From: Sanghuangporus weigelae
Lineage: Eukaryota; Basidiomycota; Agaricomycetes; Hymenochaetales; Hymenochaetaceae
NCBI GenBank assembly: GCA_033182465.1
Contig: CP137320.1
Span: forward strand, 2,666,001 to 2,730,000
Direction: 5' to 3'
Length of the DNA: 64,000 nucleotides
The position numbers and the translations under genes were made by a program. Under the pieces are notes generated by a model that had not been told where the DNA came from, did no database searches, and saw nothing but the letters and a program-made list of their open reading frames with translations. Every line of letters begins with the position of its first letter. Position 1 is the first letter of the stretch. Of the stretch, positions 1,676 through 47,600 are shown piece by piece.

Positions 1676-3276
1676 ATGTCGTTGCCGGACGCAGCAGAAC
1701 AAAACATCCAGATGTGGAAGATGAAGAAGCTCATCAAGAGTTTGGATTCGGCCAGAGGGTTCGTGCTTGTCCGATCTTTGCGATCATGTTCGAGTATTGA
1801 CCTGTCTGCAGTGCTGGAACGTCCATGATCAGTTTGATCCTACCTCCCAAGGTGCGATGAACGCGTCCGTGTCACTTTCTTTTTGAGCATCTTGCTAACA
1901 TACTGCAAAGGATCAAATTTCGCGAGCTTCAGCTATGTTGACCCAGGAGTATGGCACAGCGTCAAACATCAAGTCGCGTGTCAACAGGCAGTCTGTCCTT
2001 GCAGCTATCACTAGTACTCAACAACGCCTCAAGCTGTACAACCGTGTTCCTCCTAACGGACTGGTGCTCTTCGTTGGCACGATCTTGACGGATGAAGGAA
2101 AGGAAAAGAAGGTCTCCTTTGACTTTGAACCTCATAAGCCGATCAATACGTGAGTCTGGCCATGTGATTTCAAAACTAAATTTCTTATGTTGGCTCCACA
2201 GTTCTCTTTACCTTTGCGACAACAAATTCCACACCGAAGCTTTATCAGAGCTGCTTGAATCGGATCAGCGGTTTGGATTCATTGTCATGGACGGTAATGG
2301 AACTCTTTTCGGTACACTTGCGGGTAACACTCGTGAGGTCATTCATAAATTCACTGTCGACCTTCCCAAGAAGCATGGTCGTGGTGGTCAGTCGGCGTTG
2401 CGTTTCTCACGTTTGCGAGATGAGAAACGTCACAACTATGTTCGCAAGGTGGCTGAACTGGCGGTGCAGCACTTCATCACGAACGATAAGGTTAACGTGA
2501 CAGGTCTCGTACTCGCTGGAAGCGCCGACTTCAAGACGGAGTTGAGCCAGAGCGATATGCTAGATCAGCGGCTGGCTGCCAAAATCGTCAAAGTTGTTGA
2601 CGTCAGTTATGGTGGTGAAAATGGATTCAATCAGGTACTGTCAAGCGTTTAATGGAACGAAATTGATAATTCTGATTTCGCATCCAGGCGATTGAGCTCG
2701 CGGGCGAGTCTCTGGCCAACGTTAAGTTTGTTCAGGAGAAGAAACTAATTCAGAGGTATTTCGATGAAATCAGTCAAGATACTGGAAAGTACTGCTTCGG
2801 TGTCGAGGATACTCTCAAGGGTTTGGATTTAGGCGCAGTCGAAACCCTGATTGTTTGGGAGAACCTGGATATCACTCGTTATGTTCTGCGTAATGCCGCT
2901 GGTGGTGCGTACATTAAGCTCTAATAATGTGTTACAGGATTTCTTACATGCCATTTTCGCTCCAACGACAGAGGAGATCATCGTCCACGTTAGCAAAGAG
3001 CAGGAGAAAGATCGAGAAAAGTTCATAGACAAATCTACTGGTTTAGAAATGGAGCAGATTCAGGAGCCCCAGCCTTTACTTGAATGGCTTGCCGACAAAT
3101 ATAAGGAATTCGGAGCCAACTTGGAATTTGTCACCGATCGTTCTCAAGAGGGCGCGCAATTCGTGAAAGGCTTCGGTGGCATCGGCGGTATTTTACGATA
3201 CAAGGTTGACTTCACTCACCTTGCTTCGTTCGATGAAGATGAAGACGAGTTCTTCTCTGATGACGATGGTATCTGA
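1676..3276 (+). CDS. SUP45: Eukaryotic peptide chain release factor eRF1
   Basis: Class I release factor that recognises all three stop codons and triggers peptide release at the ribosome. The decoded protein is about 435 aa, the usual length. Domain 1 shows the GTS region, NIKS in [11 protein letters not shown], and YLCDNKF (the YxCxxxF motif) for stop recognition. Domain 2 carries the catalytic GGQ in [11 protein letters not shown]. Domain 3 follows, ending in an acidic tail ([14 protein letters not shown]) that in other eukaryotes contacts eRF3. Start ATG 1676 gives MSLPDAAEQ, and several short introns interrupt the gene; the first splits the GAGTS coding stretch. Nothing is missing from the key motifs. 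Single-copy housekeeping gene; identification is secure. Confidence 0.97.
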
Positions 3277-4036: not shown

Positions 4037-6542
4037 ATGTTCCTTCTAGTCCTCTTACCTATTCTCTTAGCAGCTCATGGTTGCGCTGTTCCGGCGTATT
4101 CAACAGAGCCTCTCGTTAAACATGCATGGACGCAGATCCCTCACGGTTGGGAGGAACTCAGGACTCCACCTCTGAACCATCCTATCACTTTGAAGATCGG
4201 ACTCAAACAACGTAAGATAGAGGAACTTATTGACACTTTGTACCAGGTTAGCGATCCTTTGCACCCGAAGTACGGGAAACATTTGTCTCGTCTGTACGTG
4301 TAAACTTCTCTGAGATTTAGGATGACTGTTGAAACTGAATATTCAAAGCGAAGCCGAAGAGTTGGTACGGCCACACGAAACTACAGTCGATGCAGTGCAT
4401 GACTGGCTGGAAGCTCACGGTATCAATGTTGCGACAGAAGTTTCACGTAATTCTGCTGGAGACTGGATTTCGGTACTTCTCCCACTGGACCACGTCGAGA
4501 AAATGCTGGATGCAGAATACAAGCTTTATCTCCATAGCAAGACAGGTGAAACTATCGTCCGGACTCTGGCGTACAGTCTTCCGGAGCACTTGCACGGACA
4601 CATAGATCTTGTGCAGCCGACGACGATGTTTGATAATATGCGCAAGATGCATGCGACGTTTCATGTCAGTGATGCACCTGAGTTGGTCTCGGATCAGTCT
4701 GGAGCCGCACCTACGAACGTCATCGGCCCTGCAGGACAGAATATATCCGCCAGCTGCAATACAACAATTACGCCGACTTGCCTCATGCAGCTATATCGGA
4801 CCGAAGGGTATGTACCCCAGGCAACGGACAAGAGTAACCGGATTGGCGTCACAGGATACTTAGAGCAGGTACGAGATCACGATATGCATAGGGGCTGTTA
4901 GCACGTTCACACCATGTTCCTTTCAGTTTGTCAACTTTGCAGACTTGCAAGTAGGTTATAATCAAACCTTTACATCACCTCATCTTACTCCAGAAACCAG
5001 ACGTTCTACCAAATGTTTCGACCTGACGCTGTTGGTTTCAATATCTCTGTCATTTCAGTGAACGGAGGTCTTAATGACCAATCAATGCCAGGCGTGGAGG
5101 TCGCTACATCCTCGCTCTTCAATTATTCGGTTAAGATTTGAACTTTTTCATCAGGCAAACCTCGATAATCAATACACGACCGGCCTTACCTTCCCTACTC
5201 CGAACATTTATTATAGTACGCCAGGGACAGCTCCGACGATCAACGATTCTGTTACACCTCCGCAACGCGATGAGCCATATATTGATTGGCTGGATTTCGT
5301 ACTCTCCCACGACGAAATGCCATTTTCTTTCACTACATCTTATGGAGGCGACGAGTGAGCTTGTCTCAGTACGAAAACAATCTTATTGCTAACTGAGTTG
5401 AGCAGACAGACATTTCCGAAAGAATTTGCTGTGTAGGTCATTCAATCATGAAGATCACCAGTAAACGCTGAGAAGGCACTCTGACAAAGCCGCGCCTGCA
5501 ACCTTTTCGCACAGCTCGGAGTGCGCGGAGCATCCGTCATGTTTAGTAGCGGAGACGGGGGCGTTGGAGATGGGACATGCCTGACCAATGACGGTACAAA
5601 TCGGACGATCTTTCAGCCTGTGAGTATACCAAATTTCAGTATTCTCGAACTCCGTGCCTTGACGATAACGATTTCAGGTCTTCCCAGCGACTTGCCCTTT
5701 CGTGACCTCAGTAATTGACCTCAGTTTCCCCTTATGACCCAACTTTCTCAGTCCACTCAATAGGTTGGCGCCACCTTTCATGTTGCTCCGGAAGTAGGGA
5801 TCGGGTTCTCACAGGGCGGGTTCTCAGTCTACTTCCCTCGTCCAACTTATCAAGCAAGAGCTGTACCGTCATTCCTCGAGAAACTTGGCAATACCTATGC
5901 AGGCTTATTCAAGTAAAGCTACGCTAGTTCATCTTGTTCCTTGTCTCTGAAACTTGCTCTTAGTCCCGCCGGAAGAGCAGTCCCAGATGTCAGTGCTCAA
6001 GGAGAAGGGTAAGCCACTCACGTAATTAGGTCCATGGACTAGCTCACTGGAACATACACATCGTCAGTTTTCAGGTAGTTTCCGGTGGTCGAGTGCTTTC
6101 TGTTGGAGGAACCTCTGCTAGTTCCCCCACCTTCGCCGCTATAGTTGCTTTGCTTAACGATGCGCGCATCTCTGAAGGGAAGCCGCCTCTCGGTTTCTTG
6201 AATCCTCTGCTCTATTCCGTGGGACTGTCAGGTAAGCTTTGAATATTGTTATGAAATGCATCGTTTACTTACATTTTGCAACTAAGGCTTCGTTGACATA
6301 CTAGCCGGAAATAATCCAGGATGTGGGACTCCAGGTGAGGTCGAACAAACTTTCGAAGTACAAGCCGAAAATCTCATCGATGATGCTTGTCCTTCTAGGT
6401 TTCAATGCCACCGAGGGTATGCATCGATTTTAATCCTTACACTAACCATAGAATTTTAACTATTACGTTCCGACAAGGCTGGGATGCTATCACAGGGCTT
6501 GGCACCCCCGATTTCGTCAAACTTAGATCTTTGCTGGTTTGA
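4037..6542 (+). CDS. Sedolisin / tripeptidyl-peptidase, S53 family
   Basis: Secreted acid serine-carboxyl protease. ATG 4037 opens a signal peptide ([17 protein letters not shown]) followed by the long S53 pro-region ([31 protein letters not shown]-like). The mature domain begins near TPTCLMQLY. Catalytic residues are all present once exons are joined: Glu and Asp in GVEANLDNQY, the oxyanion Asp in SSGDGGVGD, and the nucleophile Ser in [12 protein letters not shown]. The calcium-binding end [13 protein letters not shown] is intact. Roughly ten exons, about 600 aa, a normal length. The intron cutting the EANLD motif has the weaker donor GTCGCT. Likely role is extracellular peptide breakdown at low pH. 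The product is clear; exact exon edges in the middle (5380-5520, 5620-5700) are less sure. Confidence 0.9.
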
Positions 6543-7708: not shown

Positions 7709-8741
7709 TCACAACCCCAAACTTTATATAATATTTCCCGATTTGGAAGGACCCTGATGGCCAAATCGGAGGGGAAAGTTTTGTCAACTAGGTATTTACA
7801 AGGTATTTACAATGAGAAATATACTATATGCCTGCTGCAGACATATCTGCAAGAATTCTCTCATTTATAACCCTATGTCCATGATATCGTTTGTTCACCC
7901 ACTGTGCCTGAGGGCCTGTTAATCTATGACGATATGCATCCATAAACCGAGCAGATCTATCTGCAAATCTGTAAACACAAATAAAATGAGTGATAGATGG
8001 TTTACAAGAAAGAGAGACGTACTTCTTGAAGAGTTCTGTAGGAATAGAATCAAGACTTTGTATTACATTGTTCTCCATCTCCTTTTCATTTGATGTACAA
8101 GGTAACATCCGATAATAATATTTTGCCCTTCCCCAGCATTGCTCAATGAAGTTGAGCTCGCAATGAAATTTTGGGTAGAAAATGACCTTGTGCCCACAGG
8201 ATTCAATGTATTCTTCGAGAGCAGACTTCTGATGTCGAAAATCAGCCTGGTTGAAAAGAATGCATCTGCAGCAGCATGACGCATTCTCACCTTGATCTTG
8301 ACACTTGAAGTCCTTACACTGGGCTAACTTGCGTGATGCGTCAATTCCACGTTCAAGAAGAATTTGAGCCATGCCTTTGAATTCCCCGGGGTGAGTTGGG
8401 TGGTCTTTGGAGAAGTAAAGAGGTTGCGGACTGCCATCAGGAAGTTGTCCAGGATGCATTGGAACCTTGGGAGCACGTCCACTATGCCAGCCTGGACCTT
8501 TTGGCATGTGACGTGCAGAAAGGGCATCTTTGGCACGTTTGGTATGAGTAGTTGCATTGTCGAATGCAAAAAGTCCAGCGGTATTTGGAAATCGGTCTTC
8601 GAAAATGTCAATTGTATTCTTCACTTGCTTCATAATATCTTCATGTCCAAAGTACCCCTCTCGATTCTTGCCAGCCTTGAAAACAACCCTTGCCTGCCTA
8701 GATCTGATATAAAGTGAGTAGGAATCAGTTTATTTGCAAAG

Positions 8742-11719: not shown

Positions 11720-13041
11720 TGTAGTGCGCCGCACTTGCCTGTACCGGTACGTCGGTACAGGCCCCTCAGTACTCCGTACAGTATACCATCGTGCGGCGAC
11801 CGCTACACCTCCGCCGCTCCTTAAGACCTTCCAAACCGCCGCTCCTTGATTCGCGGCTCAACCAATACGTCCGCCGCCTCCCGTCCTTCGAAGACTTCCC
11901 AAACCGAGTATGCTTGGCCAGCCGCACTTTCTGATACACGGGCGCCTGGAACGTTGCAGCGGATGTATCGGCTACGGCGGCGGAAGGATATCGAACTGTA
12001 TAGCCGATGGAATATTCGTCGGCTCCTGATGATTGGCTTATCCGACGTCGGGTAGTGGTTTTACAAGGTCCCAGGTACCACGTTTCATGTTCATACTATG
12101 CTGCTTCGTGCGCCGAGTCCGATTGTCGGACGCGGCGGCCACTCGCGTATTCCCCTTTTAGTATTATTGCCTCCCCTGACGTTTCATATTCGTGTGGTGC
12201 GACCACTTAGCGATCCGAGCGCGCCCGATGATGATGCGCCGCGCCAATCACTGCCAGCCCGATCAGCGCGCGCCCGTGTCTTGGCAGCTTTGCGGCGCGC
12301 CCCGATCTTTGGGTCCGCACCGATTGCACGCCTGTAACGCGCCGTCACTGTCGCCGCCTCTGTGACGCTCTTCCCCAGCATTCCCCAGTATATATAGACC
12401 TCATGTATGTAGTGTTCAGAAGCAGTAGTTCAGAATAGATCTTAGTGCACTCCTCTCGTCTCTATTAGCCCTTTTGCTCTCTATCGCCTCCGCCGAAGAT
12501 CGTGTGCCGACACACCGCCGCTCTCCCGGGGAATCGGCAGCGCCATCGCCCTCTCGACAATCGGCGACACCGTCGCTCTCCTGGTAATCGGCGACACCGT
12601 CGCTCTCCTGGTAATCGGCGACACCGTCGCTCTCCTGGTAATCGGCGACACCGTCGCTCTCCTGGTAATCGGCGACACCGTCGCTCTCCTGGTAATCGCC
12701 GCTGCTCGCAGGACTCGACAGCGCCGTCGCTCTACTGCTTATTCGCGACGCCGACATCTTGACTCGTCGGCGGCTTTGTCTCGTACATTATCGGCGGCGC
12801 CCCCTCTATACGCAGACCATACCATAGCCCTTACAATTGAGCTCTCCCCACGACTGAGCGCGCATCCCGATCGGCAGCAGTGCTTCCGGGTCAAATTGTC
12901 CGCCGCGGCACCGAGCTGTCCAGGAGGTTTAGCCACGAGTTGGATCCCTTCTTACCTCTCCGATCTTTGACACCGCCGATGCCTCTCTGTGGTCGAACGC
13001 CGTCGCCTTCGCCGCTGCTTAAGAGGGTCTGATAGTCTACA
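11720..13041 (+). mobile_element. LTR-like element Y (innermost)
   Basis: 1,322 bp, starting TGTAGTGC and ending GTCTACA, with ACGA duplicated on both sides (11716-11719 and 13042-13045). Copy B of element X lacks it and shows the empty site. A TATATATAG box at about 12389 fits an LTR promoter. It is GC-rich and carries the 27-bp minisatellite. Solo LTR is likely. Confidence 0.68.
12534..12695. repeat. 27-bp minisatellite, five perfect copies plus one degenerate
   Basis: The unit starts TCGGCGACACCGTCGC and recurs at 12561, 12588, 12615, 12642 and 12669 without any difference. A diverged copy precedes at 12534. The period of 27 keeps all frames open, which creates long open frames on both strands that I regard as artefacts. 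It lies downstream of the TATA box of element Y. Confidence 0.92.
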
Positions 13042-17572: not shown

Positions 17573-18120
17573 CTCAGCATCACTGTCAATAAAATTGAAG
17601 CTCTTGTTTGAAGCAGTTTCAGTGATATGGATAGTCATGTCCTCTGAGACAACCGAATCAGAGTCAGATACCACTTCTATTGCCTGTACAAGACATCCAT
17701 AAGATGCTTTCATAATAATAAATTGCACATTCACCTCTTTCTGTTTTCTGTTTAGATTGCTGAGTCTTGCTTTCACAGTCTTAGAGAGCCGACCCATTGA
17801 CTTGACTGCAAGGTGGTTGTGCCACGAGATATCATGCTGATTACAAATGATTACAAATAACTTAATATAGAAATAATTGGTAATCCGGAGTTTGCCGTTG
17901 ATGGCCAAATCCTGAGGTCAAAAATTGCAGAACCCGCCATTGAGCAGAAAATTCATTTCTGAGTATTTTTAAGAATAAAAAAAAAACCTTGAAATTGTGA
18001 CATCAAATCTTCTTATTTTACAAAAATAAAACCAACAATCGATAGCTATGATTCAGAGGAAGACTTCTCTGGAGGCCAAATTTGATTTGAAGTCTGAGTG
18101 TTGTCAGAATTTTGACATCA

Positions 18121-18520
18121 CACAGCGGGCAATGATGCATCTCGAAAGCAACGAGATAACTCCCGAGATGTATGTGGAAATTTAAAATCTCATGATGTGT
18201 CTCGCCGCATGAGAGATTTAAAATTTCCATGCTGGAGAGATTCTAGAATCTTGATGGCCCCAAGATCCTTTCTAAGATATTAAATCTCGGCCTCGTGGAG
18301 ACTTAAAATTTAGCTAAGCATCTCATCAGGGATGAAATTTAAAATCTCTTTGTTAGGATCTCAATGTGTCCGAAATCCTCCGCGAGACGCTAAATCTTGT
18401 TGGGTCCGAGATGTAAAATTTAATTGATGCATCTCATAAACACCGAGATTTTGACACACTCATCGCGCGATCGCAATCAGAGCGCGACCGTTGCACAACC
18501 ACTGCGCGACCAGCGTGCGG
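18121..18520 (+). repeat. Left arm of foldback element
   Basis: Pairs with 19215-19618. Inner edge is approximate, near the GCGACCAGCGTGC words. AT-rich with periodic GAGAT/ATCTC motifs. Confidence 0.75.
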
Positions 18521-19214
18521 TGAGTGGAGTCAGAGATGAGTGATTATACTTTATGTCACTAATCTGAGAGGAAGGAACTCGGGCCCATGTTGTATCTGAG
18601 TTTGAGTAGTCGCTCCAGGTAATCAGATATATGTGGTAAGAGACCGCTTACCATGTTATGTCCAGTTCCATGTCTCCACATACCTGAACAACGACATTGT
18701 TGGGATACCTCAAGCTCAACAAAAGTCTGGTCGATTCGTCAAAGCTATTCATGCTCGTTTACAGTAAAGGGCAAGAAGGGTTGTCTACGTAGTAACTTGA
18801 TGGGACAACTGAAAATGTTGATTTTTCGGCACGTATTGTCATCACCGGAGACTTAAACCTGGAACTTGACAAAGTTAGCGTGCCGAAGAGCATCCCCATG
18901 ACTCTTGCGTATCAAGAAAGAGGATAGTAGGAAGAACATCTTGATTGACGTGTGATTTAAAGCTGTTTGACAGTGACTCTGTATATTATCGTGTACTTAC
19001 AAGAGCTCGTGTGGAATAGACCGATGAAGCATGATATGTGATTCGAGACACCGGGGACCGTATAGATTTTTGGTACAATAAGTGTGTGGATGTATGTATG
19101 GATCATTGAAAGGCACTTTAAGAATGGAGATTAGGTCAATCACAGACTGTAAATCACATACAAGTAAGGAGATCAACATTAAAAGTAAACTGAGGATGAG
19201 AGAAGTAATAAAGA
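18521..19214. other. Unique loop of the foldback element
   Basis: About 690 bp between the arms. Short open frames only, none recognisable. I see no conserved domain; it may be captured sequence. Confidence 0.4.
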
Positions 19215-19618
19215 AAATTCCTCATCGCGCGACCAGCGTGCTCTGGTCGCGCAATGGTCGTGCTCTGATCGCACGATGAGTGTGTCAAAATCTCGGTGTT
19301 TACAAGATGCATCAATTAAATTTTACATCTCGGACCCAATGAGATTTAGCGTCTCGCAGAGGATTTCGGACACATTGAGATCCTAACAAAGAGATTTTAA
19401 ATTTCATCCCTGACGAGATGCTTAGCTAAATTTTAAGTCTCCACGAGGCCGAGATTTAATATCTTAGAAAGGATCTCAGGGCCATCGAGATTCTAGAATC
19501 TCTCCAGCATGGAAATTTTAAATCTCTCACGCGGCGAGACACATCACGAGATTTTAAATTTCCACATACATCTCGGGAGTTATCTCGTTGCTTTTGAGAT
19601 GCATCATTGCCCGCTGTG
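19215..19618 (-). repeat. Right arm of foldback element
   Basis: Inverse copy of 18121 to about 18520; the outer end reads GCCCGCTGTG. Confidence 0.75.
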
Positions 19619-19661
19619 TCATTGTGTAGGCTGAGAATGGAAACTTGGGTTAGGCACGTGC

Positions 19662-19773: not shown

Positions 19774-20066
19774 TAACCTAGTGTCACGGGCGTAAAACCG
19801 CAGGCGTAAAACGAATCGGCTATCACCTTTTCCATTCTCTCCCAGCAACATACCTGAGTCCTGTGACAGACAGCTTCTCGTTAGAGCGCACCGCGACTAC
19901 GATATTACTAGTCGTTTTCCTCTGTATTTTCGGCCAATTGTTGTGTTGTTGTATCGTGTTTGGTCGCCCACCCTCGTCGTAGGTACTGATCTCTTGCCTT
20001 CTTTCCATGGTAATCTAATCAAGGTACTTCACAGATCGACGTCTTCTACAGCAATTCAACTTTCAA

Positions 20067-22499
20067 ATGGTGGGAAATATACCGAAATAGGCGTGATACT
20101 GCTTCTGAACTACCTGCTCTAGTCTGATAGTGAGACCGACGAGGTGAACCATCAAGTATTCATAAAACCGGATAATGGGAAACCCGTGAAATTCTTCATA
20201 CACCAGACGTTGACGCTCGAGCAACAAACAGTGCTTGAAAGAGATATTCTAGTACGTATTCCTTGACTTTTCTCAGCGAATTTTCTGACAGACTACTCAG
20301 GCAAATGGCGGGGTTCTGTGCGGTGAGGAGAAACAGGCGGATACTATTCTGGCGCATCATGAGGTCTTTCATGCATTAAGGCAACGTTATGCACATTCCA
20401 AAGCCATCTATGTTGAACTGCCGGACTTCGTTAAGCGATGTTTGAAGCAGAGCAAATACGCACACGACATTCCACAGAAAAGATCGCTGGGAGGAAGGCC
20501 TGCAGGCATCAGGTGAGTTATGTACGACACTCTGGCGCACACTCTCATTTGTAAATGGGGGGAAATAGGGCAAAACCATTCACTCACGAGGAGGACCTCA
20601 AATTGGCTAGGTATCTAGCGAACTTGCTTCCCGATCGAGAAGCAGGTGGTCGGACCGGTAATAAGGTTTATGAGCAGCTGTGCAGTCCTGTAAGGATCGT
20701 GACGATCAGCTGAGCGGCCTTTGCTCATTGTACTTAGCTTTACAGAGAAGATTATCCTTGGGCTGCAAATCATCCTTGGCAATCATGGAGAAATCGCTAT
20801 CGTAGCAAACAAGACCTCTTCAATGCGTGGATTGACGATGTACTTAGTGTGTACCCTCCGCATCCAGACGGAAAGGGCGAATATCCACACGATAGACGGC
20901 TCGTCGGCCTGGCTAGGCGTCGTCATCTACCAATAAGAACCGGTAAAGAAGAGGAGGAGTCAGAGGAGGAGAATGCTCGTGAGAGCGACGTTGTTGAGGC
21001 TGCGACCCCGGTGCCAAGGAGGACAAGGGATCAGACGGCGAACGAACGTGATGAGCCTTCTGCTCCTCACAGAAATGGAAAGAGGAGGAAGGTGGGAGGT
21101 CCTAACGTAGAACCAACGCTGACGCCCGAACAAGCCCGGAAAGGCCAACGTTATAGCCACACAGTGCATGTTGCAGGTTCCAGTGGTAGCGTGCACGATG
21201 AACTTCTGAGTAGCCCGGAACTCGTCAGGTATGTTGGTCGTAACGCCAATAAATACATTACTTGACTTTTTGGTCGCTTGCAGCTTTAACGACGATGGCA
21301 ACTACATGGACGTCTATGATGATGATTACCCGACTCGTGTGCCGATCAACACGCAAGCCACACTCGTCGGAGGTAGGCCTGAGTATGTTGGTACCAAGAA
21401 GCCTAATAATCCGGCTGAGGTGACACCCTCTTCGTCGGTGCTTACTACGGAGCGCAGAATGGCAGCGCGGAATAGGGAACGATCTGCGATTGTGAGGCCA
21501 GGTGCAACTGGACGAACGGTCTTCTCAGAGTCTCCTTCGAAAAGTACCCGAGCAACTTTTGTCGCGACGCAACCCGGCGGAGTCGTCAACCGGGAGCAGA
21601 CTCGTCTAGAGAGACGCTCAGACGATCACGATAATGTAGAGGTGATAGTTGCTAGCGCCTCTACTCGTCCATCCGGTCGAGACGCTACAAGAAAACAAGC
21701 CTCCAAGCCCACTGCCAGGCGTCCCGTGCTAGGAATGCAAACCACTGCACCGCCTGTTGCGCTGCCAGACTCGCCAATCGTCGAGACCCAGGTACGTACG
21801 GCAACGATCGATGCGCCGTACCGTAATACTCGTGCTCGATCTCGCTCCGTTGAGCCCATGCCTCCTCCGCCTGCTATTCGATCGAAGCGCAAAGGCAAGG
21901 CCGTCATGCAAATAGTAGAAGAGCTTGCGGAGGAGGCCGACAATGTCGTGAACGAGATGGATACGAACGAGGAACAGCAATCGTTGGATGTCGTTGAAGA
22001 TGCGCTTCGTATCGTACAAACCGAAGAATATGCAAGGCAAGAGGCCGAGCAAGGGCAAAGTGGAGACCCGGAAAACGAAGAAGGGAGTCAAGACGGGGAA
22101 GACGGAGAGGAGGACGAGGAGGAAGAGAGCCAACCCACCGAGGATATTGCGCTTCTTGAGAGGGGAAACGATATAAGGAAATCCATTATTGCGGAAAGCA
22201 CGCCGCATCAGTCGCAGAGCTTCAGGTCGTCTTTCGGTGGGAGCTGGCTTGAGCTTTCGAGTGTGCAGACTCGCGTCAAGGTTAACTCGCGTCACCGAGC
22301 GGAAAGCTCAGAGGGTGAGTTTCCAGCACCGGGTACGCGCTCCAAAGAAGCTAGAAATCGGCAAGAGCAAATAGAGAAGGCGGTACCATTTACGCCGACA
22401 CCCGGGACCAGAGCCGAAAGGGTTAAAGCAACGCAGTTGACAGGAGACGCCGAGATACCCGTGCTCAGAGCTAGAGCTAGGAAGATAGCAAGGCCATGA
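20067..22499 (+). CDS. Rap1-like telomere protein 1 (BRCT + Rap1-type Myb)
   Basis: I read six exons: 20067-20069, 20123-20251, 20301-20512, 20569-20689, 20738-21228 and 21284-22499, giving 723 aa with consistent phase. The start codon is the whole first coding exon (ATG followed by the GT donor). Residues about 8-105 form a BRCT-like domain (VFIKPDNGKPVKFFIH, ANGGVLCGEE, VELPDFVKRCL). Residues about 120-185 form a Rap1-type Myb domain (PFTHEEDLKLARYLA, GGRTGNKVYEQL, ANHPWQSWRNRYRSK). BRCT followed by such a Myb is the order in Rap1/TERF2IP. The rest is low-complexity and acidic (DGEDGEEDEEEES near residue 580). I find no RCT domain. Likely a nuclear telomere or chromatin protein. Confidence 0.82.
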
Positions 22500-24491
22500 A
22501 GCTACTATCCATTGCTGGTCGCAGGGGTGACGGCGTTAGCGTGGTGAAATATTTATAGCGAATCAATCGCTGTCTTTGTTTATTTGTTTATTGTCTTTGG
22601 TTTGGTTACTTGGGAAACGTAAGTGGTACGTCTTTAGATACCATGGCTTTTTTTCTGGGATCAATTTTGGGCCTGTTCCAAGCAAATTATCTAGACGTCT
22701 TTGATTCTTCTTGGCCATTACACTTGCGTCGAACGTTATGAAACTAGTCCAAGGGCCGGGTTTACTATGCTAACCAGTCCACTCGTTATTTGATGATAAA
22801 GCCGAGATCTCGTGGCGACTTATTTCGGCCAGAACTTGCGCAAAATTCTTAATGTCTGATATCAGTAAATCAAATTTACGCTTCCCTTCTGGAGAAACAC
22901 CCGAGCGCATTCTGCTGATTCCTGTCGAAGAGCTTTACTCGTGGAATGCGTGGAAAGGTATGAATCTCCTCGTGTAACCGACAACCTTTCTCCAACGTCA
23001 TGGTACGTTCTCCTTGCCCTGGTCTCAACGCCCTAGCCGAAAAAGGGAAACTGTGTGTTTTTATGTAAACTCAAGACATTCATCCGTATAGTCTAAACCA
23101 TTACGCGACGTAGATCCAGGGATGGCAAGAATGTAAAAAGCTATACGAACTCTACTAGGGAATGCAGTCACGAATGAGTACAATATCGATTGGGCATTGG
23201 CAGCTGCCCTAGCCTCGCTCGGAATCGTTCGATGCGGTGACCCGTCAAGAGGGAGATCAATCTGCATGACCTAGCCCTTCACAATGCAATAGAGCACAAC
23301 CCCTCTCTCTCTTTCATCGCCGTGCGAAGGATGGAGAAAAGTATGCACCAACGAAGCCAAGTCTTGCGCTCATTTAGGAACTTTGTACGATCAATGGCAA
23401 GGACAAGGACAACCCTTACAATTTTCCTTTTGAAGAAGACTTCATCAGTCATCGGCAGAACCTAAAGGAACGCAACGGCAAGCGCCTTTCCCTAGTACAG
23501 GAAAGTGACTGAACCACAAAGATGGCAGGAAGGCAAGACGGGCGTCAGAAAGGATTTCCTCCGCGCTTGGGGCCATGAAGAGAAACTTTCAAAAGAGTTC
23601 AGGTGGGGGGAAACCACATCACAAACTGACTTTCAGGGACCTTCAAGGGCAGCAGGAAATAAAAAGCTGGAGGAAATAGTCACCGATGGCGAGCAAAAGT
23701 AGGGAAAAATCTTTTGGTAACGGTCTTTGACGAATTACACGAGAAGATGAATACTTCCGATGCTTGCTATTGAGACTGTAACCACGTTCTACTAATGTGC
23801 ATACTATGCAGCTTGAATAGATTTCAGATGTGCTGTTCGTCGAAAATCTGGTCTGAGTGAATATATAATCAGTGTGAGAAATAGATTCCTTTTGCAGAAT
23901 GCACCGCACCTCAAGTTTAGCATTAGCGGGATTCGGAACTTACAATTGTCCCTCTCCTCTTGCAGTGCTTACTCTTATGTCTGAGCCTCACTATTATTAT
24001 TATGCTACCGGCGAATATACAGCCTCTGTACGCTTTGGCGGCGCCTTACTTCAACAATTGTAGGAAACGATCCTTCGCTCGTCAAGATTAGATGAAGGCG
24101 GTACGGTACTTTGCACTTAGGTGATCAACTTGAAGATTGTTATTCGCCGCTCTAACTCGTCTCGCCTCGGAAGGAGATGGAAAGATTTGATGCCGGGTAC
24201 ATGTTTCTGACCGTGAAAATGTGACTCGTTCAGTCCTCGTGTTCTTCACGTACCGGAATACGGGAATGGGAAGGCTCCTGACGTCGTGTATGCCCCACTC
24301 CGTAATTTGACCTTACTACAATAGAAACTTCTTCAAATCTATATCGCCGCAGCGGTGTCTCAAGGCCCTTTAGACTCCGAGACCTGCTATAAGTACTTTG
24401 CGACTCTGGAATGACCTTGGCGTACCTCCTTTCTTCCGCTATTGCCACTGGTGGCGTTCGTTTAACTCTCGTATCTCGTCTCCTGCTTCTC
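22500..24491. other. Intergenic, 2.0 kb
   Basis: 3' flank of the Rap1-like gene and 5' flank of the peroxidase gene. A few short coherent-looking peptides occur on the minus strand near 23.06-23.5 kb, but nothing recognisable and no clean exon structure. No repeat or RNA gene seen. Confidence 0.4.
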
Positions 24492-25292
24492 ATGGCCACA
24501 TTTCAGAATCATAATTCATATGCTCCCGCTGGTCCTGGAGACAGCCGCTCACCTTGCCCTGCTCTTAATGCTCTTGCTAACCATTCCTACATGTGAGTCC
24601 TCTTGCCAGTGTTCTTGTTTGAAGACGTTCTGACAGCTTCTTGCTCCAGTCCTCACTCAGGCCGCTGTATCCCCTTCTTTCAACTCATACGCGCCTTGCG
24701 AACAGTTTATAATTGCTCATACCTCTTCGCTTTCGTCTTGTCCGTTGTTGGTTTCCTCTGGTGTGGCCACCGCACGGGTTCAGGGCTTTCTACGCGCCTC
24801 GCTCTTGATCTCCACGACCTGGCTCGCCACGGACGTATAGAACATGATGGGTCATTGGGTCACGCGGATGCAGCGCCCGGTCAAAAATATGCTCCAGTCG
24901 TACCTGACCCTGAGAGGCTCGCGTCATTACTTGATGCCCAGGGGCCACGCGTAAAAGGTCCTGCAGGGGTCGACGCGCTATCTTTACTCGACCTCGCTCG
25001 TGTACGTCACCTCCGTAACACTGAGCTCGCTCGTCCCCTCGACCCTTTACATGCCTTTATCACGCGTGGCGAAGTCGCCCTTATCCTTCTCGCGCTGGGA
25101 GTAGCCAGCAACAGAGAACTGGAGGATCTAGTCGTGCCTCGCGAGAGGCTCGAACAATGGTTCACCGAGGAGCGCCTTCCCGATGACTGGGAGGGTCCAA
25201 GTACTCAAATTGGTCTTCGGAACACAGCGAAAGTGGGAAATATCGTACAGAGCGAGGTAGCCCGGTTCGCGCGGTACAACCAGGCTGGATAA
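24492..25292 (+). CDS. Heme-thiolate peroxidase (chloroperoxidase / peroxygenase family)
   Basis: Two exons, 24492-24592 and 24650-25292, 247 aa. The proximal heme ligand Cys lies in SPCPALNALANHSY, the signature of the family, and the acid-base region appears as RIEHDGSLGH. A later Glu-containing helix (FITRGEVALILLALG) also fits. These enzymes use hydrogen peroxide for halogenation or for oxygen insertion into organic substrates. No signal peptide precedes the PCP motif, unlike secreted unspecific peroxygenases, so the product may be intracellular; the hydrophobic stretch SYLFAFVLSVVGFLWCG lies within the domain. Family assignment is strong, substrate unknown. Confidence 0.9.
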
Positions 25293-26588
25293 GGGCCCAC
25301 AAAACTTCTCGTTCTGACTCTGCTAACAGTCTTGGAGTCAAATCGGTGATGACCTGCGGACTTAATGATTCTGCAACATTCGCCCCTTGCTTCGCCGTCC
25401 TATGGTCACGATTGACTACAGCTTTCGGATTCTTGTTCATTCCGGTATTGCATCTACTTTGTCACAAAGTACCCATTCTCAAGATTTCTTGTCTACGTAT
25501 AGACCGATTGTCCCTTCTCGATTCCTTAATTAGCTCTCTTGAATACCGGACGCGAATCGTTCTCTTTTATCCACTAGAATTACTGATTTTTGTTTCGGAG
25601 CTCCGATTTCGAACTTACTTTTTTTCTTTTTCTATCTAATGGCGTTTCTCACTTGTACTCACCGATGTCCCGACTGTTTTACATCCCCGTGTATCGTAAA
25701 TTTTCTGAAAAGTATGCATCCAATATTAATATTATTTTGTGTATCCCCCTATCTTGTTCACGCGTCCCTTTAGAAATGAGGCAATGTCGTTGGGAAGATA
25801 GCCAAAGTTTGGTAAGTTTCGTACACGAAGTATATTTCCCCGGATTGCGGATATCATCCCCATCATACAGTGAGCAGCGTACAGTGATATGAAATTTTTG
25901 TGTTCGTTTACTCCGCAAAAATTGTCAAAGTCGTATCTGAAACTGTCGCCCAATTTGATAATATCGTAAGTACAATGCTAATCTGAGATGGAAGATCGAC
26001 CTGAGACACGATAACACCGTCATAAAACCCGGTCGATCCACTTTTCTCTTCCGCGAACCACAGGGCTAGGACCACCGAATAAATAGTGGCGTTTGAGTTG
26101 CTTCGGAACAGAAGTGAAATTAGTATAGTGGCGTTTGTCTGCTTGTCCGGGTCTCGGACTCTGCATGTCTCGGAGGTTCGTACTTTAGAATCGCCAGACT
26201 GCAGGTAATATTGTAAGTATCAAATCTCATTCGGACTTGTAATTGTTAAACTAATCAAATTCTGAATGAGGTAAGACAAATGATTCAAAACGGAAATCCT
26301 CATTTCTTCACCGGAGCGTGCCTATGTGCCGACGATTTTGACGTCCTGAACTTCGTTTCGCCGAATCTGATGCTGCGCGAAATCATGCGAGTAGGAAAAG
26401 TCAATTCTGTCCGTTATTTTCAGACTCTTCGATCTTGTAATCAGCATTTCTAATGAGTTCCGATCTGAATGAGCAAAGCTCATACTCGTTTACTAAAATC
26501 GACTCACTTCTCAGCGCTTGTCATGTTTGTTCCCACTGCAGAAGCTCAAATGCTCCTTTGTCTGAGCATCCCTCCCACAAGAAAAGTC
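25293..26588. other. Intergenic, 1.3 kb
   Basis: Between the 3' ends of the peroxidase gene and the convergent RWDD2-like gene. AT-richer than its surroundings; only short unrecognised frames. Nothing I can name. Confidence 0.4.
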
Positions 26589-27068
26589 TTATCCTGGACC
26601 GCTTTTATTATAGCCCATGGACTTCCGCCACCAACTTTCCAAGCCTACACGTTTCATGTAAGCTCCCACTTCGCTCATTTTCTCGACCATCATTACACCA
26701 GCAGACTCAGTCGTCGCGTGCCTGTCCGCCGTCATGCGGAGATCGGTGTCATTCAACCCAGAAGTGAAGTTTGTGACCGTACAGGATGCCCAACGTAATG
26801 ACTTCGTTTTTTTAACAAACAATCAGAACATTGAGATACATGCTTCTAAATTCAGGCCTTTACTCACCTTGATCTGCTTCATGTAGCTTCCTACCTGGTC
26901 TTCTCTACCCTCGACGGCAAGAACACCAGGATACCCAACCTTACAGATACCACATAAATCAAGCTCTCGAGCCGCGTCCCGTATAAATTTCTTCTTTTTT
27001 GTGGACAAGATGTGATGGAAAGTAAGGAGGGCGCGTGCGTTTGAGTTTACAATATTCATTCCTTTCAT
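26589..27068 (-). CDS. Small RWDD2-like (DUF1115) protein
   Basis: Two exons: 27068 to about 26869, with the donor at AAG|GTGAGT, and from about 26796 to 26589, resuming at SLRWASC. The protein of roughly 138 aa shows features of the C-terminal domain of RWDD2 proteins: LLTFHHILSTKKKKFI, LCGICKVGYPGVLAVEG followed by EDQV, and a final helix with WWRKSMGY. The N-terminal RWD domain usual in the family is absent; upstream sequence looks like promoter. Function of this domain is not well known. Divergent from the second Rap1-like gene, with about 230 bp between starts. Confidence 0.7.
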
Positions 27069-27302
27069 GAAGTCTGATAGGGCTGAGATTGTGCGCAGAG
27101 GTCACGTGATTGTTGCATAAATTGAATCTCCGCTTCATTTATAAACGAGACTAACCGTGCCTCTTCCTTGAGTCCTTTCCTTTCATTCGCCATCTACAAC
27201 TTTTTGTCCCGGATTATTCGAATATTCCCCCTTTTCATGCTATGGTTTTAACATAATACTCCAATTCTGTAGTATACTTCAGTTTCTTACATCGAAATCA
27301 GC

Positions 27303-29122
27303 ATGCAATCATCCATTTCAACTCGACAATTCTGTGCAGACGACCGCGTTGACTTCTTCTTAAATGCAGAAGGTTGCGCCATAAAGTTCAGAGTACAGTG
27401 CGACCTCAGTGACTCGTTGAAAATGCGCTTGGAAGATGGGATTACTGTGGGCCAATACTCTTTTAGTTCTTACTGATTGTGAAAATTCAGTGCTCCACAT
27501 CTTTAGATGCACGGAGGGATCGTGATTGGCAAGATTCCGATTCATGGCTTGGTCATCGTGGACCCGAAGTCTCGCACTGGTCGGGACCTTGTACACGACT
27601 GGGCGTGGAAGGAACGACCTGGACGACAAATCGTGCCGTACTCATTCATTTTGCAATGCATCAACGAAAAACGACTGCTCCCGATTGATGAGCATGCGTT
27701 GCATCCTGAACAACAACATACACTCAGTGCGAACGCGTATGTTCTTTTTGATGTCACTTGTGAAAAGGCATGCTGAGATGTTGCTGGTCTATGCGCATAT
27801 AGCCAGTATGCCTTGCCTCGAAACGTGAAAGACAAGCTGGCATTATTTCTTGCTACGATCCTGCCGCATTCAACTGGTAAAAGGTCATCTAATAATGCTT
27901 ACAAGAAGCTCGCGAAGAATGTAAGCGTATATGCGCCTGATTGCTCACTTTCGCTCAGGTTTCGTTGGCTTTCGTAGAAGGAACGTTATCCTTGGGTTGG
28001 CGACTACGACTGGAAAATGCTCAGGAACCACTACTGCAGAAACAAGAAGTACTATGATAAGCTCATACCTGTGATCGTCAAGAAACGCGCTGGCAGAAAG
28101 ATACTTAACTCAGTAGCTCCATCAATCGTTACCAGCCGGAAACAATTCTTGATTGCGAAGAAGGCAGACAACAGTGCAAAACTTTCAATTATAGAGGTCG
28201 TCCTACCCCGTAACGAAGCCACAACAAAAGGTCGTGCAAACAAGAAAGTCAAATTTGATAAGCCTTTTCTTATTGAGAGCAAGCGGAAATTTGGGAATGA
28301 TATCACGAACGAGAAGATGATGAAGAAACTGCGTACAATCGACGACATGTTGAAGGCACCTTTACCACCAATTGTGGCTGAAAGAAAGATTACAAGGCGT
28401 TCAGCAAAGCAGGCGACGTCCCCCGTACTGCCTGGTGAGTACCTCTAAATGCTTAAGTTCTGTTATTTGACTGTGTCGTTCAGCTGGAAACATTTCGGAC
28501 ATCGAAATTGGCCGACCCGCATCGCAAGATGCTCATGCCGGCATTTGGATCGATGATGGTTTCAAGGAAGACAGGTAACGTTTCTTCAGCTCGATCAGGA
28601 CCTGCTCACTGATATAACATGCCTCTTGTTTACCGAAGGTTGCGTAGAGAGAAGAATACTCTGGGACCTTCTGGACCTCGTCTTCAGGATTGCTTTTCAG
28701 AATCTCTGGTTTACTATAACATGGGACTCGACGATCTACGCCTAGCTGCTTCATTGGACTTGATGGATAATAGCAGCGACTCGGAAGTAATTGACGAGGC
28801 TAGCGTCCTGGAACTACTTGAGCTACCTATTGAGGCTAATACTGCTCGCGGGACTGATCCTAAGCTCAGGCTAAAGACAGCGGAGCCTTCTGATAACCAG
28901 GCAGCTTGCTCACACCTGGAAAACGACGAAGCCTCCAGATCTGCTGCCATTCTGGAACTCGCAGCAAGTACCCGCTTCACTGCGGAAGAGATCAAGCAGA
29001 AACTACATGGCTTCTCGGGAAATGTGGACAAAACACGCGACTTCTTTCTGCGCTGCCGGCAGCTTGTGGATGACTTGTTCATAAGTAGTTCCATTACTGA
29101 ACGAGGCGGTGCGTTGAAATAA
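27303..29122 (+). CDS. Rap1-like telomere protein 2 (BRCT + Rap1-type Myb + RCT-like end)
   Basis: Six exons: 27303-27446, 27507-27736, 27803-27920, 27978-28434, 28484-28574 and 28639-29122, giving 507 aa in consistent phase. The BRCT-like domain is at about 11-110 (VDFFLNAEGCAIKF, HGGIVIGK, VPYSFILQCINEKRLLP). The Myb domain at about 130-190 (KLALFLATILP, SSNNAYKKLAK, YPWVGDYDWKMLRNHY) aligns with that of the gene at 20 kb, including the spacing before YPW. The C-terminus at about 445-490 (TAEEIKQKLHGFSGNVDKT, then RDFFLR) resembles the helical RCT domain that Rap1 proteins use for protein contacts. The middle is basic. Probably a diverged paralogue, or the true Rap1 with the other as paralogue. 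Confidence 0.78.
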
Positions 29123-34811: not shown

Positions 34812-37019
34812 ATGAGTAGACGACCGAATAATGTGCGCGGACCGACGTCTGCCTTGACAGAGTTTCTTCGGGTCAATACCTCGTTCAGCTAATGTCTGAG
34901 TCAGGCCTTTGTTCTCATTTTTCTTTTGGCATCCAGGAACAAGGCATCAACTCGACTCTTATCGCAGCACGCGCTCGCACGCAGCAAGAACAGGAGCAGG
35001 AGCAACCGGATGCTGGGCCGAGTAACTTGAGCAATGGTATGGATGGGAACCGCGCAGGAGAAGGGGAGTCTAATGAGGTGCGCTTGTGGCTCGGTTCTGC
35101 GCCCGCTTACGGGCATAAAATTGATTATGAATCCAGCCTCCAGTCGATTATGACTCTGAAAACTTAGATGGAGAAAATGAGGGAAATGAGAAGCCGGCGA
35201 AGAAACGCAAGCTTAGTAAGAAGGAGGAGGTAAAACTCAAAGCTAATGAAAAGGCGAAAGCAAAGAAGAACAAGAAAGCGGGAAGTGATGACGAGAGTGG
35301 CGATTCTGAGGATGATGAATACAGCGCACTGTCGCGTGGTGCTGCACGAAATAGGGCCAGAGCAAGCTTACCAGGCGCTCAACCTCCTATCGGGAGTTTT
35401 GAGAGCTGCGCGAAGTGCGGGAAGCAGTTCACTGTGGTATGGTTTCTTGATTTTACGTTTTGGCGGATAGTCTTGACCTTATCTTTGTTTCGTAAGACCC
35501 GATATACTATGGCAGCTAATCCGGGCCCAGGCTGGCTTTGTCACGTATGCGCAAAAGCGAGCGGTGCTGACCCGTTCAAGAAACCATCCATACCACGTCA
35601 GAGAAAGCCACAGGAAGGAAAGCGTAAGGTCATAAACTTTGAAGATAGAGAAATTCCGTCCCTTGCTTCGTTGTGTATAAAGGTAATGGAAGTTGCAGGC
35701 TTAAGGGTCGATTAATTCATGAGGATTTTTTCTTTCAGGTCGTCAGCCAGCATATCGAGGATGTGGAAGCTCTCGGAGACATTAGCTCCTCTAGTAAACG
35801 AGAGATAGGAAGAGCACTTGCTAGAAATCGTAGTCTGTACGTGATTTATTCTAATAAGCCATTTTGACGCTCGTGTCACCAACTGAAACATAGGACGATT
35901 GACAAGGCGCCGCTTTTATACGACGTGAGAAATACAGAGCTCACAATTTACGATGGAACTAGTGCGTCCTTGGTGACCATTGTAAATTTTACTATCTGCT
36001 TATTTTCTATTGGAACAGAGCTTGGCCCAAATGCATTCTGTGCTCTCGCTTCCTTGAATCCATCTCTTGAATCATTACGCATTGACTTCTGCGGGATGAT
36101 TAATGACGATGCTATAAGGTTTTGGGGCGAACATCTCAGCACCCTCAAGCGTATTGAACTTCTGGGTCCTTTCCTTGTCAAGTCGGAGGCGTGGCAAGCA
36201 TTATTCACGGGTCTCCCGCAACTGACTGGCTTTCTCATCACTCAATCCCCTCGGTTCGATATCGACTGTATGGCGAGTCTTGCGCAACACTGCCCTGATC
36301 TCGAGGAACTGCGCTTAAGCCAGATTGGCCAGATGAGCGATGAGTTTCTGGGTTACGTCGCCGGATTCAAGAATTTAATCAGCCTAGACCTTAGCGTACC
36401 TTCCACAAGCCTGGGCACGGAAGCAGTCGTTACGCTACTCAATGCAATTGGGTCTAACCTTATCCACCTCAACCTTTCGAAGAACGATCTTCTAACGGAC
36501 GAAGTTCTTTCTGAGGGCCTCCAGCCAAACGCTCGTGTCCTCACATCGTTGGTGCTTGAAGAGCTACCCGAGATAACCGACGCCGCGATGGGAGCTTTCT
36601 TTGCCAATACAACGAACACCCCCATGCGTCGCATTTCCTTACGGCGAAATCATGATTTAGCCGATGAAACCCTCGTCGCGCTTCTGAAGCACTCAGGCAG
36701 TACCCTCACAGAGCTTGATATCAACAGTTTGAGAACTATGTCGAATGAGGCTCTTCTTTCGATAGGGGAACAGGCAAGGAGCCTCCAGAAGCTCGATATT
36801 GGCTTCTGTCGGCAAGTTGATGACTTTGTTATAAAGGCTCTTCTTGACAGATGCGAAGCCATGAAGGATATATCGGTCTTTGGGTGCAATAAGCTGACGG
36901 AGAACTGCCCGAGAAAGGTCCGTCTATTTGCATGTGCTTCTGAAAGTTGATAAACTAACAAGTCCACTGGCCAGCAGCGTGGAGTCAGCATCCGTGGTAT
37001 CGAAACAAATGCTGTCTAG
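34812..37019 (+). CDS. RAD7: DNA repair protein Rad7/Rhp7
   Basis: Leucine-rich-repeat protein that with Rad16 recognises damage for global-genome nucleotide excision repair. Start MSRRPNNVRGPTSALTEFLR matches the conserved Rad7 N-terminus (GPxSALTxFLREQGI after splicing). Next come an acidic and lysine-rich linker (KPAKKRKLSKKEE), then a zinc-finger-like pair SCAKCGKQF and WLCHVCAK, which Rad7 proteins share. A long LRR array follows (LEELRLSQIGQMSDEFLG, LIHLNLSKNDLLTDEVL, LQKLDIGFCRQVDDFV). The last exon adds RGVSIRGIETNAV to the stop at 37019. At least eight exons. Complete and apparently functional. Confidence 0.9.
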
Positions 37020-44677: not shown

Positions 44678-47600
44678 TCACAGCCCATTCCACTCAAAGA
44701 CATCTGATTTCTGCAGAACGAGAGGCGCCTTCAACGGCAAGCTCTCGGACGATGATCCGACATGCACCATGTACTCTCCGCTCTCGATCGTCCAAGCATT
44801 AATGCATTCTTCCCAGCAACTTACCGCATATTTGTCGAGCGTAAGTTCTACGATACGCTTCTCGCTGGGTTTCACGTCTCGTAGTTTCTTAAAGGTACGT
44901 AGGGCAAGAGGCACCTGAGTAAGTGCGGAGGTCACTGGATGCGCGACGTATACTTGGACAATCTCAGAGCCCGCAACAGAACCCGTGTTCGTCACTGTCA
45001 CCGACACAATGACGGAGAGGTCTTTCCTGCTGTCTGAAGCTACGACCTTTGGCTTTGAGACGCTCAGGTCGGAGAACTCGAAAGTTGTGTACGAAAGTCC
45101 GTGGCTATCTTAAGTGTCAGTTGCTACTTCATCTCAACAGGAAGCAGACTGTACTTACCCGAACGCCCATAGGGGTTTGATCTTGATGTTTTGGTAATGC
45201 TTGTACCCCTGAAAATGATCTGCCTGAGCTTCATGCATAGATGTCATACGATCCAAAAGGACTCACGACGAACAGATCCTCGGAATATAGCACGGTTCCA
45301 TTCTCTGAGTGGAAGTGACCATATGACGGCACGTCCTCGAGTCTTTTCGGGAACGTGAGAGACATCTTGCCGGATGGATTCACTTTACCAGTCAGGACAT
45401 CTGCGATGGCATCACCTGTTGAGTTACCGAGATACCACGCGTGTACGATGGCCGGTACAGAGTCAGCCCATGGCATGGTAATAGCAGAGCCCTGATCAAT
45501 GACTGAAATTAGCACCGCGTAAGATAAAGTACACATTAGTCTTACCGACTGCGTCACAACAACTGTATTCTTGTTAACTGCTGCTACTTTCTCCACCAGC
45601 TCGTCGGTACGCCCAGCAAGAGCCAGCGTGGTTCTGTCGTAACCCTCACTTTCCCAATCACTGTTCAATCCCACGACAACGATGGCGATGTCTGCCTCCT
45701 TTGCAAGCTGGATGGCAAGAGCTAAATCTCCGTCCGGGTCCTTTACGGGAGCACCGCCGAGGCGGACTCCAGGATTAGAGTCCATAAGTAGCTCATCCTC
45801 ATCTCCATCTGCTGGGCCGCGCACGTTAACATAATGCACATGTACGTCGTGTGCGACTCCTGCTTTCAGTTCGAAGACTGCCTTCTCTTCCATTGTACCT
45901 GAGCTGAAGAATGCTTCTCCACGCCGTTGACGTGTCCAGTTGTCGATTAGAAGCTTTCCGTCGATGTACAACTGTAATCATCAAAGCATGATTTAGGACT
46001 ATTGGCATACCGATAATCAAATGGTGTACCTTAGCACGTCCTGCAACAGTTAAGCCAAACTCGAACTTCGTATCCTCATTTTTTGGCTTCGTTTTGCCTC
46101 TCAGATGTAGAGTAAAGTGAGTGGCGACTCCCTTTGGCTTGTCTACCGAGATAAATGCATTCGTTTCATCGATTACTTGCGTCAATACTGGATTTCCCTG
46201 GGCAGCCAAGCCATCAGGACCATTCGAGTACCATTCTCCTGTCCAGCATTTCTCGCCCTTTTCTGTTACAAGCTCATTCTCGAGCGTAGGCAACGTTTTA
46301 AATGCTAAAATTCAGTCAATTGACGTTGCCGACTTATTGAGGGAAGTTATTCGCTCAGTCCGTACCTCTGGCACCCTCTGCATAGGTGATTTCGATGTTC
46401 TCACCGAGAGCTTTTGCAATGCCATCGTAGGGTGAGACAAAGTATGACGCTTTCAAAGACGCGGAACCACCTCCAGAGAGGACGGCTGCCTTTGCATTTC
46501 CACCCACAATTGCGACTTTCTTCAGCTCAGAGATCTGAAGAGGAAGCAGACCTCCTTCATTCTTGAGAAGCACGATCGACTCTGAAGCGACTTTGCGCAT
46601 CAATGCGGTGTCCTCCTCACTCTCGACAGTTCGCTCCTTGCCGTCCCCGTCTAGTATGTCCGGCGCACCTTGAGCACAGAGCTTGACCAACTCAAGCACT
46701 TTCGCTGCGCGTGCCTTGACAATGCGAGCTGTAGTCTTACGAGCTTCGACCGCACGTCGCACCTTGTCCCAAGTTCGCCACTTGTTAGTGCCGGGCATTT
46801 CAAGGTCGAGACCAGCGTTAATACTGTCCGATACGCTGTAAACGCCAAACCTTCATAGTTTTCCCGGCGTTAGCTCTATAACATACACGATCACCAAAGT
46901 GAATAATAGTAGGGATGCGTACCAGTCACTCATGATTGGAGCACTTGATCCCCATTCTTTGCGAACGATGTCCTGTAGAATCAGAGGATTCTCAGACACA
47001 TGCAGACCATTCAGTTTATTATACCTAAAAAATGGTTTATACGCGTCTTTCAAACGCAAACTGATTTACTCACGCAGTCATGAATGACCACGGCTTCGCA
47101 TATTTCTCGGTAAGCATGAATGGCATCAAGTAGATCTCGCGCAACGCTCGTAAAGTGACGCGACTGTCGTAACCCATACGATCGTTCTCCTTGTCATTCG
47201 TGCTAAACGCGCCCAATATCCATTTCGTAAATAGTAAGACCTGGGGAAGAGACTGTACACCCACGCAAAGTGCTTGATTGCGGTGCCGATCCCTTGGGAT
47301 TGAATGCCTGCAACGTAGGCAGAGGCGATCAGGCCCGACAAGATTGGATCTTCTGAGAAGCTCTCGAAGCTCTAGGGGAAAATAGATCAGGACTTGATCC
47401 GCGTGTTGCATGAGGTTGCGCCGAAAGACGTACCCTGCCGCCGAGAGGGTTCTATATGGTGACAAATGAGAGAAACAATCAGTTATGAATAGAACCAATG
47501 AGGATAAACATTGAAGAGATGAAGCGATGTTATTAAAACAAGATCCTCACTCGTTGGATATTGCACGTCGGAGCGAGGATTATGGAGGCTGAACGTAGCT

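What the first reader, a model, noticed from the sequence alone, without database searches (positions are those of the whole stretch)
20067..29122. Two Rap1-like BRCT-Myb genes within 9 kb
Both genes at 20.07-22.50 and 27.30-29.12 kb encode a BRCT-like domain followed by a Rap1-type Myb. The two Myb regions align (YLANLLP/FLATILP, NKVYEQL/NNAYKKL, YPWAANHPWQSWRNRY/YPWVGDYDWKMLRNHY). Rap1 is usually single in a genome, so a linked, strongly diverged pair suggests an old local duplication and division of telomere or silencing tasks.
Basis: partly seen in the sequence, partly recalled or inferred. Interest (0 to 1): 0.8.

Follow-up and report, generated by a model that had tools for sequence, protein, structure and literature searches.

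The report
Two linked Rap1-like fungal genes
Two neighbouring fungal genes look like very old copies of one another and relatives of Rap1, a protein known from chromosome ends; one still has a clear Rap1 DNA-binding domain and the other has drifted far from it, and what either does is untested.

Summary
Both genes are real and intact. A (20067-22499, 723 aa) and B (27303-29122, 507 aa), both +, each splice as six exons. A has a Rap1-type Myb above Pfam's cut-off (35.1 bits, cut-off 27.1) and a sub-threshold BRCT; B has a sub-threshold BRCT and no Pfam Myb match. B's Myb is visible through A: 21 of 62 residues identical, score 99 against a best of 51 in 500 shuffles. Three introns in the BRCT-Myb part share phases (0, 2, 0) and positions, two exactly and one within two residues, so the genes are paralogues copied as genomic DNA. 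The split is old: BRCT similarity is marginal and the tails share nothing. No Rap1 C-terminal (RCT) domain was found in either. The pair is linked but not adjacent: a Peroxidase_2 gene and a Prp3_C-type frame lie between. Division of telomere or silencing tasks is untested. Copy number and phylogeny could not be checked: no genome is held for this window. Duplicated, specialised Rap1 is known in methylotrophic yeasts (PMC6510891). Modest interest: a diverged linked pair of a known kind.

The parts
20067..22499 (+). Gene A, BRCT + Rap1-type Myb, 723 aa; exons 20067-20069, 20123-20251, 20301-20512, 20569-20689, 20738-21228, 21284-22499. An ATG at 20007, also followed directly by GT, would give the same protein if spliced to the same acceptor.
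   Evidence: GT-AG introns of 48-56 nt; second ATG
20186..20456 (+). Gene A BRCT match, residues 23-96 (exons 2-3)
   Evidence: Pfam BRCT_2, 20.7 bits with the region alone, below cut-off 27.3
20579..20806 (+). Gene A Rap1-type Myb, residues 119-178 (exon 4 and start of exon 5, split by the intron 20690-20737)
   Evidence: Pfam Myb_Rap1 35.1 bits; matches human Rap1 Myb 1fex, 0 of 2000 shuffles
21284..22499 (+). Gene A last exon: charged tail with an acidic run at residue 589; no RCT match
27303..29122 (+). Gene B, BRCT + diverged Rap1-like Myb + C-terminal part, 507 aa; exons 27303-27446, 27507-27736, 27803-27920, 27978-28434, 28484-28574, 28639-29122
   Evidence: GT-AG introns of 49-66 nt
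27381..27692 (+). Gene B BRCT match, residues 27-110 (exons 1-2)
   Evidence: Pfam BRCT_2, 25.2 bits with the region alone, below cut-off 27.3
27804..28067 (+). Gene B diverged Myb (exon 3 and start of exon 4, split by the intron 27921-27977)
   Evidence: homologous to A's Myb; no Pfam match
28639..29122 (+). Gene B last exon, C-terminal region; helices predicted only at low confidence; RCT not detected

Best explanation
A and B are anciently diverged paralogues of the Rap1 kind: nuclear proteins with an N-terminal BRCT (protein contact) and a single Rap1-type Myb (DNA contact). They arose when an intron-bearing gene was copied as genomic DNA, probably locally. Shown: intact gene models, homology, shared introns, unequal divergence of the Myb. 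Inferred: A still reads or clamps DNA with its Myb, since it keeps the FT..ED start of the first helix and basic residues just before it. B, whose first helix and arm have changed but whose W..LRN.Y helix stays basic, works mainly through protein contacts via its BRCT and C-terminal region, as an adaptor with weak or altered DNA binding. Whether they act at telomeres or as Rap1-like regulators elsewhere is open.
For: Spliced models without internal stops. Myb_Rap1 in A above cut-off. BRCT_2 as the best family for both BRCT regions given alone. A-B Myb 21 of 62 identical, BLASTP E 3e-9 for a single comparison, 0 of 500 shuffles. Introns of phase 0 at QQTVLERDIL|ANGGV and LKMRLEDGIT|MHGGI, of phase 2 in the BRCT-Myb linker, and of phase 0 inside the Myb before YPW; random uniform placement matched three such sites within 6 nt and in phase in 8 of 2,000,000 trials. 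Unequal divergence: A matches human Rap1 Myb, B does not. Human RAP1 uses arm residue R133 of its Myb on DNA and its BRCT to contact KU (PMC12221994, passages). No convincing third copy among 906 six-frame ORFs of 40 aa or more in the window (best other E 0.8) or by tblastn (best other E 1.5).
Against: BRCT scores are below Pfam's cut-off in both, and A-B BRCT similarity is weak (4 of 500 shuffles reach it). B's Myb has no Pfam match. A model of B's Myb, read through its intron, had mean pLDDT 64.8 and matched no Myb in the PDB by Foldseek (12 matches, best E 2.9). No RCT in either. B's third-helix slice is more basic than A's (net +5 of 18 against +3 of 16), which argues against lost DNA binding. 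No expression, selection or orthologue data.
Confidence: 0.5

Rival explanations
1. The two genes are ordinary members of a larger BRCT-Myb_Rap1 family in mushroom-type fungi that works away from telomeres (transcription or chromatin), and their closeness says little about telomeres.
For: No RCT found in either. Myb_Rap1 (PF08914) is among the Pfam domains used to collect MYB genes in two Ganoderma surveys (PMC7407476, PMC8955403; passages), though no per-domain count was seen. Rap1 paralogues in H. polymorpha also have sites at ribosomal-protein gene promoters (PMC6510891, abstract). That such families are multi-copy in mushrooms is my recollection, from no call.
Against: No family count could be made; only two copies were found in the window.
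Confidence: 0.35
2. A is the true Rap1 and B is a relaxed, decaying copy on its way to loss.
For: B's Myb is far more diverged from human Rap1 Myb and from the Pfam model than A's.
Against: B keeps six exons with GT-AG splice sites and no stop over 507 codons, and a slightly better BRCT score than A, unlike a decaying gene.
Confidence: 0.08
3. B is not of Rap1 descent: a BRCT gene that acquired a look-alike Myb independently, and linkage is chance.
For: No Pfam Myb match in B; BRCT similarity between A and B is marginal; B alone does not match human Rap1 Myb.
Against: Three corresponding introns across BRCT and Myb together, plus strong A-B Myb similarity.
Confidence: 0.05

Closest known systems
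Rap1 / TERF2IP (human RAP1; yeast Rap1)
   Same: N-terminal BRCT followed by a Rap1-type Myb; A's Myb passes Pfam Myb_Rap1 and aligns with human 1fex
   Different: no RCT domain detected in A or B; two linked copies; B's Myb too diverged for the Pfam model
HpRap1A / HpRap1B of Hansenula polymorpha (PMC6510891; abstract and section 14 read)
   Same: two old, strongly diverged Rap1 paralogues in one fungus
   Different: the yeast genes lie on different chromosomes and resemble ScRap1 in BRCT, duplicated Myb and RCT; here they are 4.8 kb apart with one Myb each and no RCT found
Tay1 and Trf2 of Ustilago maydis (PMC7744550; start of abstract and passages)
   Same: two Myb proteins doing different telomere work in a basidiomycete
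   Different: described there as having distinct domain structures from each other; not described as Rap1 relatives in what I saw

Membership tests
Rap1 (gene A) | Rap1-type Myb domain | tested here: met
   Myb_Rap1 35.1 bits, cut-off 27.1; 0 of 2000 shuffles against 1fex
Rap1 (gene A) | N-terminal BRCT | tested here: inconclusive
   BRCT_2 20.7 bits, E 5e-4, below cut-off 27.3
Rap1 (gene A) | C-terminal RCT domain | tested here: not met
   no Pfam RCT match; no match to a 34-aa human RCT piece (1573 of 2000 shuffles as good). Absence is not proof: C. albicans Rap1 is listed without one (PMC4839565, Table 2 passage)
Rap1 (gene B) | Rap1-type Myb domain | tested here: inconclusive
   no Pfam match; homologous to A's Rap1-type Myb
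Rap1 (gene B) | N-terminal BRCT | tested here: inconclusive
   BRCT_2 25.2 bits, E 2e-5, just below cut-off 27.3
Rap1 (gene B) | C-terminal RCT domain | tested here: not met
   no Pfam match for the last 77 residues alone, no PDB match for the last 86, no match to the human RCT piece; structure model mean pLDDT 39.1, unusable
Rap1 (both) | localisation to telomeres or binding to a telomere protein | not testable with these tools
   needs ChIP, tagging or pull-down
Tandem duplicates | adjacent copies sharing gene structure | tested here: inconclusive
   same strand, 4.8 kb apart, three shared introns, but two unrelated genes between

The most novel reading that the evidence does not exclude
The linked pair is a conserved two-gene module of mushroom-type fungi in which the work of one Rap1 has been split: A keeps the DNA-contacting Myb and B keeps the protein-contacting BRCT and a C-terminal adaptor region, and the two act together at chromosome ends or silent chromatin.
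Probability: 0.15. Interest if true: 0.6.

Novelty: new member of a known kind. Interest (0 to 1): 0.35.

Why it matters
[quoted passage not shown] A diverged, linked pair would let one ask whether the BRCT and Myb functions of Rap1 can be separated between paralogues, and would add a second fungal lineage to the methylotrophic-yeast example.

Tried and rejected
RCT domain in B: by eye B's FTAEEIKQKLHGFSGNVDKTRDFF resembled the human RCT, but the local alignment score was no better than shuffles (1218 of 2000 reach it for the whole tail, 741 of 2000 for the last 80 residues) and the best-scoring alignment was not at that place. Dropped.

Structure: B's last exon folded poorly (mean pLDDT 39.1), so its fold was not searched. 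B's Myb, read through its in-frame intron and aligned with A's, gave mean pLDDT 64.8; Foldseek against the PDB gave 12 matches with E up to 10, none at E 0.001, none a Myb. The intron-derived insert may spoil the model.

Relatives: three viral-contig scans and one genome-contig scan (bacteria and archaea) confirmed none. Five PDB sequence searches with window sequence gave no Rap1 chain; the two-sequence profile gave a weak match to the PARP4 BRCT chain 9dfr_A (E 0.65). Papers: ten searches; from the titles and abstract starts listed I saw no report of linked Rap1 paralogues in a basidiomycete. Four of them listed only part of what they found (20 of 48, 20 of 108, 20 of 180, 10 of 46), and one search found no paper.

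DNA-level comparison of 18-30 kb (repeats of 18 nt or more): the one direct repeat that lies in both genes is 19 nt over the E(D/R)YPW codons; two other short pairs lie in non-coding DNA at unlike distances from the genes, and one inverted pair (73%) joins unlike parts of the two last exons. No duplication boundary is visible.

Full report
What is there. Reading 18.5-30 kb and splicing by GT-AG sites gives two complete genes on the + strand. Gene A, 20067-22499, has six exons and 723 residues. Its start codon stands alone in the first coding exon; an ATG at 20007, also followed directly by GT, would give the same protein if spliced to the same acceptor at 20122. Gene B, 27303-29122, has six exons and 507 residues. 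The ten introns are 48-66 nt with GT-AG ends. GC at third codon positions is nearly equal (0.503 and 0.508). The models rest on sequence alone; there is no transcript evidence.

Domains. Pfam gives A a Myb_Rap1 match of 35.1 bits against a cut-off of 27.1. BRCT_2 is the best family for both BRCT regions given alone, at 20.7 bits (A) and 25.2 bits (B), both under the cut-off of 27.3. Both have a F[VI]xxC[LI] stretch near the end of the BRCT (A in DFVKRCL from residue 86, B in SFILQCI from residue 94); that this is typical of BRCT domains is recalled. B has no Myb match in Pfam in either scan.

Are A and B related? Their Myb parts align with 21 of 62 residues identical. The alignment score of 99 compares with a largest of 51 in 500 shuffles; for the BRCT parts alone 4 of 500 shuffles reach the observed score; for the tails 231 of 500 do. 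A profile of A plus the human Rap1 Myb scores B's Myb at 25.7 bits, with 12.1 the best among 1000 shuffles. Since A is in that profile, this shows kinship to A rather than an independent match to Rap1. The human domain alone recognises A (score 48, largest shuffle 46, 0 of 2000) and not B (182 of 2000).

Shared introns. Three introns in the BRCT-Myb part correspond: before the (N/H)GG of the BRCT (phase 0), in the BRCT-Myb linker (phase 2) and within the Myb before YPW (phase 0). In alignment A1 the first and third fall at matching columns; the second is displaced by two residues in a gapped linker. Three introns placed at random in 615 nt matched three sites (B's own positions were used) within 6 nt and in phase in 8 of 2,000,000 trials; uniform placement is a simplification. 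This supports one ancestral intron-bearing gene copied as DNA. A has an extra intron after its start codon; the introns in the tails (one in A, two in B) cannot be matched because the tails do not align.

Neighbourhood. Between the two lie a Peroxidase_2 gene on + (ORF 24597-25289, 91.2 bits) and a Prp3_C-type reading frame on - (26823-27101, 30.7 bits, cut-off 27.6). The pair is therefore linked, not adjacent. No convincing third copy was seen by tblastn or by a profile over 906 six-frame ORFs. The window holds no TTAGGGTTAGGG with up to one mismatch, so nothing here places the genes at a telomere.

The species was not identified.

Mechanism. In the human complex the RAP1 Myb sits on DNA with arm residue R133 and the BRCT contacts KU (PMC12221994, passages). 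A keeps basic residues just before its first Myb helix (slice GRPAGIRAKPF, net +3) and the FT..ED helix start; B's matching slice is ANAQYALPRNV (net +1). The third-helix slices are basic in both (A +3 of 16 residues, B +5 of 18), which leaves DNA binding by B possible. I infer that A is the main DNA-contacting partner and B leans on protein contacts. This step is inference from few residues, with slices chosen by me.

Against a full Rap1 label: no RCT was found in A or B. My own by-eye RCT resemblance in B failed its test, and the structure model of that region is unusable. RCT can be missing in fungal Rap1 (C. albicans, PMC4839565 Table 2 passage), so the label Rap1-like is safer.

Known background. 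H. polymorpha carries two old Rap1 paralogues with distinct but overlapping DNA preferences, on different chromosomes, and two homologues were found in eight methylotrophic yeast genomes (PMC6510891, abstract and section 14). Two Ganoderma surveys used PF08914 among their MYB domains without giving its number in what I saw (PMC7407476: abstract, one passage and section 12; PMC8955403: passages). Ten paper searches listed no linked Rap1 pair in a basidiomycete, judged by titles and abstract starts (calls and caps in Tried and rejected).

Verdict. Interest 0.35.

Noticed in passing
18117-19622: A 1.5-kb foldback element: inverted arms 18117-18501 and 19244-19622; a 356-nt stretch is 96% complementary. 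It ends 444 nt before gene A's start codon at 20067; no target-site duplication of 5-11 nt was found within 6 nt of its ends.
   Followed up: partly
12512-12698: 27-nt tandem repeat, 6.9 copies, 88% matches, inside an open reading frame at 12446-12967 (+).
   Followed up: no
35131-36947: ORFs with an Rhp7-type treble-clef zinc finger (51.7 bits) and sub-threshold leucine-rich repeats: perhaps a Rad7/Rhp7-type nucleotide-excision repair gene.
   Followed up: no
26823-27101 (-): Reading frame with a Prp3_C match (30.7 bits), probably an exon of an unrelated gene between A and B.
   Followed up: no
7827-8729 (-): Sub-threshold DDE_3 transposase match (24.4 bits, cut-off 28.6).
   Followed up: no
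2089-2649 (+), 4326-4898 (+), 45234-45977 (-): Other Pfam matches above cut-off: eRF1 domain 2, Pro-kumamolisin activation domain, glycoside hydrolase family 3 C-terminal domain with PA14.
   Followed up: no
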